From assembly GCA_947396885.1 (NCBI GenBank), contig OX377202.1, positions 59,670,034-59,734,033 on the forward strand: a stretch of 64,000 nt of DNA, written 5' to 3'. The position numbers and the translations under genes were made by a program. This document shows positions 3,001-42,000 of this stretch, piece by piece. Numbering within the stretch: position 1 is the first letter of the stretch; the number at the start of each line of letters is the position of its first letter. This stretch comes from Heligmosomoides polygyrus polygyrus. Its lineage: Eukaryota > Nematoda > Chromadorea > Rhabditida > Heligmosomidae. The notes beneath the pieces were generated by a model. The model did not search any database, was not told the origin of the DNA, and saw only the letters and a list, made by a program, of their open reading frames with translations.

Positions 3001-6000
3001 GGGTTTGCATATGATCAAATTCCGTCAAGCAGAGTCAGGAATTGTGATTTCGGGATAGCCAATCTTGAGTTTAGAAGAACGAGAAATGACCTACTGCTCT
3101 TCCACAAACCTGTAAACAATGGAAGCAGTATAATGTTCACTAACGTAGTAACATTGAGAGCATCTAGTCCTTGCGGTGGAACAACACATTTTTCTTACTT
3201 AGACAAAAGAAAGCTATTGCTATCGGAAACCACATCAAAAAACTAATACACTGAAAAAAATCCGTGAAATTTTTAAGCATATTTTCACGGCACCCGCTGC
3301 GGTGTCTCGTTGCTATCAAAAGCCGCCGTGTTCATCGCGGCATAGCAGCATGCCGTCAAACTGCTTCCGGCCAGGAGCATAAAACAAGACGACAACAACA
3401 GTACGGATATGAATTTCAATTCATTTCAATCCAAACTGCTTGGCTTTCGTCCCGTTTGTTGTACGTGGAGTTTGCTACTATGAATCGGATGTTTTTGCTC
3501 GTAACGAGGTCAGTAGAGATCGACATTGAACATCAAACTAGCGTGAAGGAGTAGAGATAATAGGCTACTGGTGTTGTTAAAAAATGTTTTATTTCCAAGA
3601 GATCTGTCCACTTTAGCTGAAGAATATCCTTTTTCGGTAAAGTATAAATAGAGACTTATGCTGCTAAGAATTAGCAAGTTCTCGTTTTCAGGAGAGATAA
3701 TATGGGAACGTGACTTCAGTCAGCCAATCGTTGCTATGTACTTGCTACAGGACGATGGTCTTCACAAGTTGCATTTTACTGTGGTGGGTGGCGAAACGAT
3801 GGAGAACCTTATTAAGGTACCCGCTTGACTTTCATTTACTCGATCATTCGCTGCTTTGACAATAATGAGGTACAATGGAAACTTCATTTGATGAGAGATA
3901 TGTATAAGAATTAAGCCGCGGGCTGTGATTTCTTCAGATCCGCCTTCATGGTTCTGTTGACGACCTTGCAGGTGTGTTCTGCTCAGACAATTGACCGTTT
4001 GGACCTTTTTTACGCTTACTCTTCTTCTTCTTCGTACTCCTGAAAATCATCCAAATCTGCAAGATTCGGAAAGATGCAGTGCTAAAACAAAGGGAAAACA
4101 TATGCGAAGAAGTGAGTAACAGAATTTGGACAAAAGTTAGTCCAGCTGCGTTCAAGCTCTCCTTTTGGTGCAGAACGTTCGTTGAATAATAAGGTTTACT
4201 CCGGCTGTACAGAACAGTGCACGTGTTGCAGACACACAGGAAAGACTGATCTGGTCTGATAATGGACCTCTATGTAACTGACTTTCTAGGAACGTATGGT
4301 TCGGCATAGTAAGGTTCCTCTTTATGTACCTCGTCATCCTCCGCGTCTTCTTCACTATTAGAGACACTGAAATAAGTTAGATTTAGATTACAGAAATGCT
4401 TCTGCCGCTAAAAGGGCTGCACACAGGTCTTGAACATCGCTCTCATATCGTAAATACTTTCCGAAGCTCAGTGTTGGGTAAGACTTGCACAATCCTTCAC
4501 GGCTAATCTGTTTTCTTTTATCAGGCCGTCTTGTATGTCGGTAGTATGTATTTGATTCTGTGGTAACTGCAGCAAATTGTAATACAAACAGCAATTAATA
4601 CTCAATGTTCTATGTTAATATCAGTTGTTCCAGTCGAGATTCTCCTTGTCTGCGCGAGTAAATATAGCTAGTATAAGTCGAATATAGGCGCGCAGCTTTG
4701 CAATGGCAACATAGTGACATAATTTAGAATTTCAAAGATTAACTTCCGCTGCTCCCGCTTTCACACTAGAAATGAAGTGTGCGTCAACGTTCAGTGCACA
4801 ACGGAATTCAGAGTAACGTAGGGACACGTTTCCGGAATAGCACTCATATAAACCTCTAACAATAACAACAGCAAAGCTGTTATTGTTGGAGTTTGATATA
4901 TAGTGGGATGGGATACTACATATATAGAGAAATTATGAGTAGTACAGAAATCCCATTATTTACTCTGGACTGTGGCGTGTGCAGGAAACAAATGAAATGT
5001 TTCCTGTGGAGATATTCTTTTCTATTGCCGTCATTACATGTGCAAGCGAAGAAGAAATTCCGTGATAGAAGCACACCAAGGATTAACTGTGATTACCAAG
5101 TTAATCATTGCGGATAAACCTAAGCCAAGAATCAACAACTCATTGTCAGAAAAGGAGGTCGAAAGTCAAAACAACACTTTATAACAAAGGCTATAGAAGA
5201 TATTAGGCCTTTGAGATACAGGGCCCGCCCCAAAGGTTAATTGTGTATTCTGCTTACTGGTAGTAGTATCGTGAGGCATCTGCTAATGTACATACTCATG
5301 GTCAGCGCACCTCACACATGACACACCAGGTGCTCCACTCAAGCTCACACGTATTTTTGTCACGACTCACTCTTGTATGCAATCTCGCAGCGGCCAGGCG
5401 CATTGCTCTCCGTTTTCTGTCCCTTTTTTCTTTTTTCTCTCATTTTCTCAGTTTCTCTATGCTTTTTGCGAAGTACCAACCATTATCTGAAATCCTCCCT
5501 GTTTACCTATACGTGCCATTATTTATGTTGGTCAAATAAATAAATAAATATTAGGTTGATCGGAAAGTATTGGTAGGGTTTTCATTTTTCTTCTTTATTT
5601 CTTTATTCACTCTTCACACAATGCAGATCAATCAACAATATAGTCACCATAGTTGGCCACCGAGGTGATCCACCTAGTGGGCAGATTAGCGACTCCCTTT
5701 TTCCAAAAATGGGATGTCGAGAGATTGCTGTTTCCACAACCACCATTTACTGCGTCAATACTTTTTACGCACCCTGTAGTATGCAAAATGCCCTTTTTAT
5801 TTCGAAATGAAGGGTCCGGTTTGAAATGAAGTGACCGGTTAGGATGAAAATGATATACATATATAGGATATCTTCCTTAATCAGTGGCGGTATCTGTTAC
5901 GGAGTTTTTTCGGCTTCAAGTGTAACGATGACACTTCGCCGTCCTAAAAACAGAACAGTAAAGATTAAGTGAAAATGTTAGTTTCGCCCTTGTATTCTGA

Positions 6001-39000: not shown

Positions 39001-42000
39001 TCTTGCGTCTTGTGTTGAGCGACGTTTCAGGTTGTAGTGTAGATACTGTATTCCACCATAGAACTGCAGAATTTGTGCGCGGCAGGCGCTGCCTGATTAA
39101 TTTTCCCGTTTGTGGCTAGAACCTTCCCTGTGGCACAAACCGCTTTTGTGGACGTCTTCTTTATGGTCCTCGCACTTTCAAGGGCTTGTATCCAAGTACA
39201 TCCAAGCTGAGGCAGCGGAATGTGTTCAAGTGGCCACGTGTGCAATGCGTTATTTTGCCTGCATTGTTTTTGGATACTTCTCTAAATCTTCCTCCTCTGT
39301 TTTACACTGAGGGTGCCGTCAGTTGTGGGAAATTTCTGGCCAGAGTTTCTGGCGCCAACATGTTGTTTCAAGCTTATGCTAGCAAACCTCTCGATGCTTT
39401 TTTTGAGCGCGCATGACATGGTGGCAAGTGTCAGGCCGCAGCAACGTGTTCTAGGTTCGGGAAAACTCGTTCCTTCATGGGCATCTCGTCCTTCTCAAAG
39501 AGGGATGGAGCTGCGAGTGATGAACCATAACATACTTCTCACCTGTGAGGTAAAAAGGGAGGACTGTGGTTAATTGTTCGCTTTGCGCTCCACCACACAT
39601 CTTGCCTCTATACACAGTTGCAAATGAATGCGTTTTGTCGGCAGATAAGTAGGTCGTGCTCCGTGTATCACTTGTACAAGGGTAAAGTGCCACCTGGCAG
39701 AAAGCTGCAATAGGGAGTGATTTTCCATTCCAGAAAGCCTCTGTTATGCGAAGAAAGGAGTAGCTTATATTGGTAGAAAGAGCGCTTTAATGTCCTCTCT
39801 GATCATACAATAGAGCTCCAGTAGGCCTTTTCGTTTTCCTAAGGTTTGCGTCATGAGTGCACGGAATGCCTTCCGCGATGAGTTCGGAACTTGCACTGGA
39901 TCCACTCATTCAGAAACGATACATATCACCTTCTGTAGTCATGTGATGGCTACACGGAGGAGAAGCTCACCCAAAACTGCGAGATGAGCAACAGTTGACC
40001 CTTTACGGTATATAACGAAAGCAGTTATACACACTGACAACCGGCTCGCGTTTTGGCATAACCGAGTTTTTCCGAGCGTAGAAGCAAAACTTGATGAACT
40101 CGAGAAATTACTCATCCAGGGATCATTACACGTTTCAAGAGTTAGAATGGGATTGTGGTACGAACAGGGATGAGAGAACCCGGCCATTCTTGAGGAAACG
40201 ACCCACATCATTTTGACCACTCTACTTTTCAGCGCAATAGCTGTATCGCACTCTGCCTGCGCCGCATCGTAGAAGTCACGTCACTGTTGGCATCTCGAAT
40301 TTTGGCAGGAAAGTCACTATGTACTTCCTCCAAATGCGCCATACTATCCAATGAGCACTGTTAGAAAGCTTAACAGTGCCTTTGAGTTACACTTGAGCTT
40401 CTTCCTCGTCCCATAAATCCAAACGTTCAAAAATTATTCAGGCATCGGAGATTTTCAGCGAAAAGCTGCGGCAAGCACTCTCCTTTTTGTTGAGCCTTCG
40501 CGTCGCTGGTCGTAGCGCTTATCGGCTGAAGGGCTGCGGTAATCGTATGAGTTACGACGGTTATTGTTACGATTACTCATGTAATTTCAAATCTCGCTGT
40601 TTAACATCCTATACTCCTTCAGTATTTTGCTCGAAAACGAATTTCAGAGCACTGGCCATATTCCTATAGTTTGCAGAGTTTTCTTCCACTATACGTTGGG
40701 CTGTCTTTATGCAGAGGTCCCTTTTCAGAGTGCGCTAACCACGGACGGCAAGTACGAGGCCCTGTCGGAGAAGGGCGCGTCGGCGAGGACCACTTCGCCG
40801 CAGAACGCGTTGTTCGCCACACTGTACGTGGGGGAGTCGTCCTTCGGACTGTACGCGATGGATGTGCTGGTCGACAAGCACACCATCACCTATGCACCGA
40901 AGTACCTTGGACCTCCACTGCTGGAAGGGCCGAGTCCGATTGCTCTAACGGTCGGTCCACCCGGCGACACCGATGTCACCGGAGTGTTTGGAAACTGCTA
41001 TGGTTATTGCTTTCAGGATGAGGAGAAGTCTAAATTCATTCCTCCATCCAGGCCGGTCATTACAATCGACGTGCCTGCTATAACACACAAGACAACAGAT
41101 GGAGAATTTCTACTTCTAGGTAGGCAGAACAGCAGCGGCTGTCCTTACGGGCTTTGTGGAAACTGATCCAAGTGTTCGAAGTGGTGCGCTTAGCGCAGTC
41201 CCAGGAGGCACCGACTCTCGTGTGCAAGGTTCGAGAACCTTCCAACCCTCGGGCTCAGCGAATTGGTACCAGTCTTCTCTGCGAACTAAGAACACTAGTT
41301 TGTTCATAGGCTGGCCACCTCATGTCGTCGCAAAGAGGTCATGTCATTGACAGGATATTTAGAAAAGCTTCACCAACGTTTGGAGAGAAATCGGTTTACG
41401 TTGCCACACTGTGAGCACTTCTTCCCACTGGGCACTGTACGTAGAGACTACTACGCCATGAAGTGTCCTAGAATTGCAACGCTTGATTGAGGTAAATGTC
41501 ATTTACGTGCAATAGTTTAGTAGTGTACGGGCGTTTTGCATCTGAGCTTGCTCAGCGTTCAGTTTCAACAGCATTTCGACTACCGAATATCAGTTGAAAG
41601 TGTCAGTAGTGTTTCGAGGTGTATTCGAGAACTCGGTTACCACATTGGGTTAACCATCTCAAAGTTTTCGCGACACTGTTGCCCTGAAACGCCCATCGAG
41701 CATCCGCGTACATCTGTTTCAGTCGACAAGCCTAACCAACCAACTTCTCATTACACCTACGAACGTGGTTCTTTTGACCCAAGGACAGGGCGGACCTATG
41801 GTAACTCCGTCCTCTCCTTGTACCAAAAGAACCGCGTTCATAGGTGTAATGAGAAGTCATTTGCTACCGGTATGGTAGTTAGCTTGTTCTACTCCCTACT
41901 TCTCTTCTCGATTGGGACTACTTTCAAACGAGTAGTGTTGTATGAGTATGAGTGCAACAACGATGAAACCTGCAGTTCACTTCTGCACAACTTCGGGCAA

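What the first reader, a model, noticed from the sequence alone, without database searches (positions are those of the whole stretch)
3817..40728. A complete unc-105-type channel gene nested antisense inside one intron of ire-1
ire-1 luminal exons at 1-199 and 3692-3816 and the next one at 40729 are consecutive in protein and in phase. Between them, on the opposite strand, lie all 15 exons of a 917-residue degenerin (37515 to 4270). A membrane channel gene fully enclosed in the unfolded-protein sensor gene implies overlapping opposite transcription over 33 kb: transcriptional interference, dsRNA formation or stress-linked co-regulation are all plausible. From memory, the C. elegans genes have consecutive names on cosmid C41C4, suggesting old linkage.
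Basis: partly seen in the sequence, partly recalled or inferred. Interest (0 to 1): 0.92.

Follow-up and report, generated by a model that had tools for sequence, protein, structure and literature searches.

The report
Channel gene nested inside ire-1 intron
In this roundworm a whole degenerin channel gene lies backwards inside one intron of the gene for the cell's protein-stress sensor, and the two genes stay linked in distant nematodes, where gene annotations often cut the sensor gene at this same spot.

Summary
The nest is real. An unc-105 orthologue on the minus strand lies wholly inside one 36.9-kb intron (3817-40728) of ire-1 on the plus strand. The 3816|40729 junction is right. A product in transcript-sized contigs (P0001) matches unc-105 at 922/923 residues; another (P0198) matches the window's ire-1 at 413/418 and joins 3816 to 40729. 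Of 45 N-truncated nematode IRE1 entries, 33 begin at or near this junction. In Ancylostoma ceylanicum and Nippostrongylus the downstream ire-1 model begins antisense to unc-105 exon 1. I read it as an ancient opposite-strand nested pair, kept mainly because separating it would break ire-1 (inference). Interference, dsRNA and stress co-regulation are untested. Two testable extras remain open: an unc-105 3' UTR crossing an ire-1 exon, and a sensor-less short ire-1 transcript from the unc-105 promoter. Nested pairs are a known kind.

The parts
134..199 (+). ire-1 luminal exon A
   Evidence: gttttcag|CC...GGAG|gtaagt; matches P0198 from residue 189
3692..3816 (+). ire-1 luminal exon B, last exon before the nest, ends phase 0 (...ENLIK)
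3817..40728 (+). 36,912-nt ire-1 intron holding all unc-105 coding exons
40729..40950 (+). ire-1 luminal exon C, first exon after the nest (SALTTDG...)
   Evidence: cttttcag acceptor, phase 0
41017..41119 (+). ire-1 exon D
43803..43915 (+). ire-1 exon E
43973..44122 (+). ire-1 exon F (hydrophobic, transmembrane segment by inspection)
46122..46217 (+). ire-1 exon G (linker)
52121..52209 (+). ire-1 exon H (kinase start)
52267..52396 (+). ire-1 exon I (kinase N-lobe)
62995..63084 (+). ire-1 exon J (kinase)
63144..63216 (+). ire-1 exon K (kinase); gene continues beyond the window
37287..37515 (-). unc-105 exon 1 (start codon at 37515)
34729..34955 (-). unc-105 exon 2 (first transmembrane segment by inspection)
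30851..30949 (-). unc-105 exon 3
30686..30770 (-). unc-105 exon 4
21844..22080 (-). unc-105 exon 5
21301..21617 (-). unc-105 exon 6
21087..21244 (-). unc-105 exon 7
19889..19980 (-). unc-105 exon 8
19670..19830 (-). unc-105 exon 9
19514..19612 (-). unc-105 exon 10
15767..15981 (-). unc-105 exon 11
11608..11788 (-). unc-105 exon 12
6751..6884 (-). unc-105 exon 13 (second transmembrane segment by inspection, GLWIGAS)
6476..6653 (-). unc-105 exon 14
6231..6412 (-). unc-105 exon 15
   Evidence: GT-AG form of the junction, 4283/4039, verified
3946..4039 (-). unc-105 exon 17, last coding exon, stop at 3946
3817..3945 (.). 129-nt gap between the unc-105 stop and ire-1 exon B; holds AATGAA at 3888 and 3836 (-)
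   Evidence: weak matches to it in the tail of the Necator ire-1 model (E 0.33), and at its unc-105 end in that of A. ceylanicum (E 0.005)
3588..3593 (-). AATAAA, 352 nt after the unc-105 stop; if used, the 3' UTR crosses ire-1 exon B
   Evidence: background 0.61 per kb, so weak alone
37410..37490 (+). plus-strand frame antisense to unc-105 exon 1, matched by the annotated first residues of the downstream ire-1 model in A. ceylanicum and N. brasiliensis
   Evidence: E 5e-15 (77% over 26 aa) and 1.3e-10; in this window the only phase-0 donor after that ATG is at 37415

Best explanation
This is an ancient opposite-strand nested gene pair. ire-1 (plus strand) is spliced across a 36.9-kb intron. 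Inside it, unc-105 (minus strand) is a separate 17-exon gene, presumably transcribed from a promoter in the 3.2 kb between its start codon and ire-1 exon 40729. Shown here: exon structures, enclosure in the window, products of spliced size for both genes, conserved linkage, and annotation breaks at the same junction. Inferred: the pair persists mainly because, once unc-105 sat in that intron, a rearrangement separating them would usually break ire-1; the two genes mostly work independently. A side effect, a short ire-1 transcript from the unc-105 promoter, is possible but unproven.
For: unc-105: 922/923 identical to P0001, whose longest contig is 3195 nt while the gene spans 33.6 kb. ire-1: 413/418 identical to P0198, a 923-aa PQQ+kinase+RNase protein with longest contig 4627 nt, joining 3816 to 40729. 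Exon boundaries GT-AG and in phase. Locus tags: Necator unc-105 RB195_020971 next to ire-1 N-half RB195_020972; Diploscapter WR25_10364/10363; P. fissidentatus 5871/5870; A. ceylanicum ire-1 halves Y032_0125g1298 and g1300; Nippostrongylus halves Q1695_013282 and 013280 (the middle tags of the last two were not seen). Four N-half models run to the junction and stop within 27 residues after it; 33 of 45 N-truncated entries begin at reference 229-296, junction 252. The downstream ire-1 model of A. ceylanicum and of Nippostrongylus begins antisense to unc-105 exon 1; codon-compatibility runs against UNC-105 of related species are 16 and 21 residues, maximum of 60 shuffles 9 in each.
Against: No RNA reads were seen; that source 'lgn' is transcript assembly is my inference from contig size. 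P0198 differs at 5 of 418 residues, so it may be a sister species or another haplotype. In 9 of the 19 agreeing species the contig is chromosome-sized (6.8 to 93 Mb), which is weak linkage evidence. Contig lengths differ in A. besseyi, Acanthocheilonema and A. duodenale; in the last two the sizes suggest different assemblies, in A. besseyi they do not. 12 of 45 N-truncated entries begin elsewhere. In 11 of 13 comparisons of model ends the antisense-compatibility test gave no signal. So enclosure, as opposed to linkage, is directly shown only in the window; in A. ceylanicum and Nippostrongylus it follows from model ends and tag order, in Necator weakly. Entrapment is not distinguished from selection for the arrangement.
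Confidence: 0.87

Rival explanations
1. ire-1 has become two genes in these nematodes: a luminal-domain gene upstream and a separately transcribed kinase-RNase gene downstream, with unc-105 between them.
For: Many annotations show separate halves; C. elegans has a listed 625-aa product starting after the junction (P0131); the acceptor at 40729 could also take a spliced leader (inference).
Against: Of 60 nematode IRE1 entries mapped, 11 span both halves: six in transcript-sized contigs (P0198, P0202, P0203, P0208, P0209, P0222; contigs 3.1-4.6 kb) and five named (Haemonchus P0197, Cylicocyclus P0199, Brugia P0215, P. fissidentatus P0221, A. besseyi P0273).
Confidence: 0.07
2. The arrangement is maintained by function: transcription of unc-105, or dsRNA from overlapping transcripts, regulates ire-1 (or the reverse) under stress.
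For: Deep conservation; unc-105 stop only 129 nt from an ire-1 exon and an AATAAA that would carry the 3' UTR across it; 423 nt of the longest P0001 contig (3195 nt) lie outside the coding sequence.
Against: AATAAA occurs 0.61 times per kb on that strand by chance; two AATGAA sites 57 and 109 nt after the stop, against a background of 0.44 per kb, could end the UTR before the exon. PMC4994411 reports no expression correlation between such pairs in Pristionchus. No expression data here.
Confidence: 0.15
3. The window is a misassembly that brings two unlinked loci together.
For: Repeats and foldbacks lie in the intron; no second assembly of this species crossing the intron was seen.
Confidence: 0.02

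Closest known systems
ceh-10 nested in polq-1 (C. elegans and other nematodes; PMC12274878: abstract, found passages and Discussion read)
   Same: Protein-coding gene on the opposite strand inside an unrelated host gene; broadly conserved in the nematodes examined there
   Different: Different genes; a short host transcript starting at the nested gene was shown there experimentally, here it is only conjectured
vps-4/npr-23, ddx-27 and sel-2/mab-21 antisense pairs (PMC4994411: found passages and section 9 read)
   Same: Antisense protein genes embedded in long introns of conserved hosts, some conserved over nematode clades
   Different: ire-1 and unc-105 have 0 occurrences in that main text; they may be in figures or supplements, which I could not read
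C. elegans unc-105 and ire-1
   Same: Both proteins on a contig of 15,279,421 nt; the degenerin shares 69% identity over 74% of my first model
   Different: Enclosure in C. elegans itself was not tested; the gene names C41C4.4/C41C4.5 are recalled (C41C4.5 occurs in no held paper)

Membership tests
Opposite-strand nested gene pair | Whole coding region of one gene inside a single intron of another, on the other strand | tested here: met
Opposite-strand nested gene pair | Both genes expressed as separate spliced mRNAs | tested here: inconclusive
   Transcript-sized contigs encode both proteins (P0001, P0198), but the RNA origin of source 'lgn' is inferred
Conserved nested pair of nematodes | Same pair linked in distant species | tested here: met
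   19 of 22 comparable species share contig length (hit lists capped at 120)
Conserved nested pair of nematodes | Enclosure in the same intron in distant species | tested here: inconclusive
   Antisense model starts in A. ceylanicum and Nippostrongylus; entries begin at the junction in 33 of 45; no foreign DNA could be read
DEG/ENaC channel, UNC-105 orthologue | Complete ASC domain | tested here: met
   PF00858 313.8 bits, profile 3-454/455, for the 838-aa first model; 307.3 bits for P0001, which differs from the final model at one residue
DEG/ENaC channel, UNC-105 orthologue | Closer to UNC-105 than to other degenerins | tested here: met
   69% over 74% of the query to C. elegans UNC-105 (P0009); 43% over 42% to C. 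elegans DEG-1 (P0071); no tree built
DEG/ENaC channel, UNC-105 orthologue | Cation channel activity in muscle | not testable with these tools
   needs experiment
IRE1 | Luminal domain, transmembrane segment, kinase and KEN RNase in one protein | tested here: inconclusive
   The window holds only part (luminal C-half to mid-kinase); the matching P0198 has PQQ_2 28.4, Pkinase 139.8, Ribonuc_2-5A 140.8 bits
cis-natural antisense transcripts with exon overlap | Mature mRNAs overlap | tested here: inconclusive
   AATAAA at 3593 would give overlap, AATGAA sites at 3888 and 3836 would not
Nested-gene-driven short host transcript (as ceh-10/polq-1) | Host transcript starting at the nested gene | not testable with these tools
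   Only gene models hint at it; in the window the only phase-0 donor after the antisense ATG is at 37415

The most novel reading that the evidence does not exclude
The unc-105 promoter fires in both directions, so that unc-105-expressing cells (muscle in C. elegans, recalled) make a short ire-1 mRNA starting in the nest. It would encode transmembrane segment, kinase and RNase without the luminal stress sensor. unc-105's 3' UTR also runs antisense across ire-1 exon B and trims the full-length form. The nest would then be a conserved switch between stress-sensing and sensor-less IRE1, and many 'C-terminal' IRE1 models in nematode databases would be real products rather than annotation errors.
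Probability: 0.12. Interest if true: 0.75.

Novelty: new member of a known kind. Interest (0 to 1): 0.42.

Why it matters
Most antisense nested pairs in nematodes are lineage-specific (PMC4994411). This pair stays linked in species of what I recall as nematode clades III, IV and V, so it is a good case for asking whether nests persist by entrapment or by function. A practical point follows either way: ire-1, the unfolded-protein sensor, is listed as broken pieces in many nematodes including parasites, with the breaks mostly at the intron that holds unc-105 here; that the nested gene causes the breaks is my inference. The break gives a simple correction to annotations and a clear test for a sensor-less IRE1 isoform.

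Tried and rejected
My own first model with 14 exons and 838 aa was incomplete and was replaced; it was the query.

Conserved alternative first exon for a short ire-1: the shared start of the A. ceylanicum and Nippostrongylus models looked like a real alternative exon, but it is the antisense of unc-105 exon 1 and in the window has no phase-0 donor beyond 37415; I treat it as a probable annotation artefact that still shows orientation. Antisense-compatibility of model ends: 2 of 13 comparisons positive, 11 negative; both positives compare one species' ire-1 model with another species' UNC-105. Model ends against the window by tblastn: 27 ends prepared, the 2 shortest skipped; besides the two strong hits only matches at E 0.005 or worse, mostly chance. 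AATAAA as proof of exon overlap: rejected as too common. Rfam and tRNA scans: 0 hits. Literature: no held paper has both words unc-105 and ire-1 (the spelling IRE1 was not tried); the other searches were seen as listings, of which three papers were opened in part (PMC12274878, PMC4994411, PMC2330155); supplements could not be read, so the pair may be in published tables.
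Full report
Organism. Names of the best protein matches show a strongylid nematode. Product P0121 (Heligmosomoides polygyrus, 33,580-nt contig) matches even intron-derived stretches of the window (52716-53189, 81% with gaps), so the window is most likely Heligmosomoides (inference).

The nested gene. A first manual model of 14 exons and 838 aa gave a Pfam ASC domain of 313.8 bits covering profile positions 3-454 of 455 and ENaC/ASIC-type channels among 31 matched structure sequences. 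A protein search returned 128 proteins, 120 listed; the top ones are nematode UNC-105: 88% in Necator, 82% in Haemonchus, 69% in C. elegans (each over 74% of the query), against 43% over 42% for C. elegans DEG-1. With P0001 as guide (tblastn) the model became 17 exons, 37515 to 3946, 923 aa, identical to P0001 at 922 of 923 residues; the last junction in GT-AG form is 4283/4039. P0001's longest contig is 3195 nt, whereas the gene spans 33.6 kb, so it must come from spliced RNA; that its source label 'lgn' means transcript assembly is my inference.

The host gene. Eleven ire-1 exons lie in the window, all GT-AG with consistent phases, giving 418 residues, of which 413 match P0198. P0198 is a 923-aa protein with luminal PQQ-like repeats, kinase and RNase domains in contigs up to 4627 nt, and it reads ...ENLIK|SALTT... 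exactly across 3816|40729. Five residues differ, so P0198 may be from a sister species or another haplotype.

Geometry. The unc-105 stop is 129 nt from ire-1 exon B and its start codon 3,213 nt from exon C. Downstream of the stop on the minus strand there are AATGAA at 3888 and 3836 and AATAAA at 3593. Use of the last would carry the 3' UTR across the whole 125-nt exon B; use of either AATGAA would not. The longest P0001 contig leaves 423 nt outside the coding sequence, which would fit the longer UTR, but AATAAA occurs 0.61 times per kb on this strand (AATGAA 0.44), so this stays open.

Conservation. The protein tables give the length of the longest contig for each hit, which serves as a fingerprint of the contig. 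Taking species with both an UNC-105 and an IRE1 entry carrying a contig length (the lists of 17 and 29 are capped at 120, so species may be missing), lengths agree in 19 of 22: Necator, Cylicocyclus, Dictyocaulus, C. elegans, C. auriculariae, C. bovis, C. angaria, Auanema, Diploscapter, Pristionchus fissidentatus, Mesorhabditis belari and M. spiculigera, Toxocara, Dirofilaria, Cercopithifilaria, Loa, Litomosoides, Ditylenchus and Bursaphelenchus xylophilus. They disagree in Aphelenchoides besseyi, Acanthocheilonema viteae and Ancylostoma duodenale. Toxocara (ire-1) and Dirofilaria (unc-105) each also have an entry on another contig. In nine species the contig is chromosome-sized and agreement means little; three contigs are 0.5 to 2.1 Mb; in seven species (37 to 357 kb) agreement means close linkage. 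In A. besseyi ire-1 is listed whole (1045 aa) and on a different contig from unc-105, which would fit un-nesting.

Enclosure elsewhere. I mapped 60 nematode IRE1 entries, chosen by eye (unnamed ones included where they looked nematode), on P0198, and one left out at first, Romanomermis P0142. Eleven span both halves, five are N-terminal pieces and 45 lack the N-terminus. Of these 45, 33 begin (first blastp segment) between reference 229 and 296, the junction being at 252; 12 begin elsewhere. Related species are not independent. Of the five N-terminal pieces four (Dictyocaulus, A. ceylanicum, Necator, Nippostrongylus) run to the junction and stop within 27 residues after it, and one (Cooperia) stops one exon earlier. 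The last residues of the A. ceylanicum N-half (DPPSWF, E 0.005) match the window at 3937-3954, antisense to the unc-105 stop, and those of Necator (E 0.33, weak) at 3878-3904; 25 model ends were tried, and other hits at such E-values are chance. At the other end, the downstream models of A. ceylanicum and Nippostrongylus begin with a peptide that matches the window at 37410-37490 (E 5e-15 and 1.3e-10), antisense to unc-105 exon 1. A codon-compatibility test against UNC-105 of the window's near-identical P0001 and of Haemonchus (P0003) gave runs of 16 and 21 residues against a maximum of 9 in 60 shuffles each. With the locus tags of the halves (g1298 and g1300; 013282 and 013280) this places the start of unc-105, in the same orientation, between the two ire-1 halves in those species; the tags in the middle were not seen. 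The same test on eleven other comparisons found nothing.

Mechanism. What is shown is structure, products and conservation. I infer that the two genes are mostly independent and that the nest endures because separation would break ire-1. Published work bears on this in both directions: in Pristionchus, intron-embedded antisense genes and hosts are uncorrelated and most pairs are lineage-specific (PMC4994411, passages and section 9); across five animals overlaps are fewer than expected and poorly conserved, but nested antiparallel ones have the highest conservation rate between human and mouse (PMC2330155, abstract and section 6); in C. elegans, where 567 such pairs were counted, the nested ceh-10 induces a short transcript of its host polq-1 (PMC12274878, abstract, passages, Discussion). 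The ire-1/unc-105 geometry would allow the same, giving an IRE1 without its sensor, and a listed 625-aa C. elegans product begins after the junction (P0131), but I have no transcript starting in the nest.

Novelty. Nested antisense genes are a known kind, and deeply conserved examples are known. No held paper contains both words unc-105 and ire-1, and both have 0 occurrences in the main text of the two nematode papers opened; their supplements may list the pair. I file it as a new member of a known kind, with above-average interest because of its depth of conservation and its apparent effect on annotation.

Noticed in passing
window 16298-17377 (+): Uninterrupted 359-aa mariner/Mos1-type transposase frame (Transposase_1 105 bits, HTH_48 48 bits) inside an unc-105 intron, hence two introns deep.
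   Followed up: partly
window 50565-51648 (-) and 42850-43317 (+): Further mariner-type remnants (HTH_48, Transposase_1) in later ire-1 introns.
   Followed up: no
window 56541-57520 (-): Reverse transcriptase (RVT_1) remnant in two overlapping frames.
   Followed up: no
window 18015-18302 and 34353-34640: Two 288-nt copies of a repeat, 96% identical, both inside unc-105 introns.
   Followed up: no
window 23684-26263, 28932-29856, 59915-61283: Large nested inverted repeats (foldback-like), one arm pair of 182 nt (24725-24906 and 25802-25983) 100% complementary.
   Followed up: no
P0025 and P0273 (Aphelenchoides besseyi): unc-105 and ire-1 on contigs of different length (9,972,226 and 10,346,542 nt) and ire-1 listed as one 1045-aa protein: possible loss of the nest.
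   Followed up: partly
P0131 (C. elegans, 625 aa): Listed IRE1 product that begins after the junction, without most of the luminal sensor; could be a real short isoform.
   Followed up: no
P0130 and P0194 (Cooperia oncophora): Kinase and N-terminal pieces of ire-1 on two small contigs (15,293 and 36,555 nt) with locus tags only four apart, 19772 and 19768.
   Followed up: no
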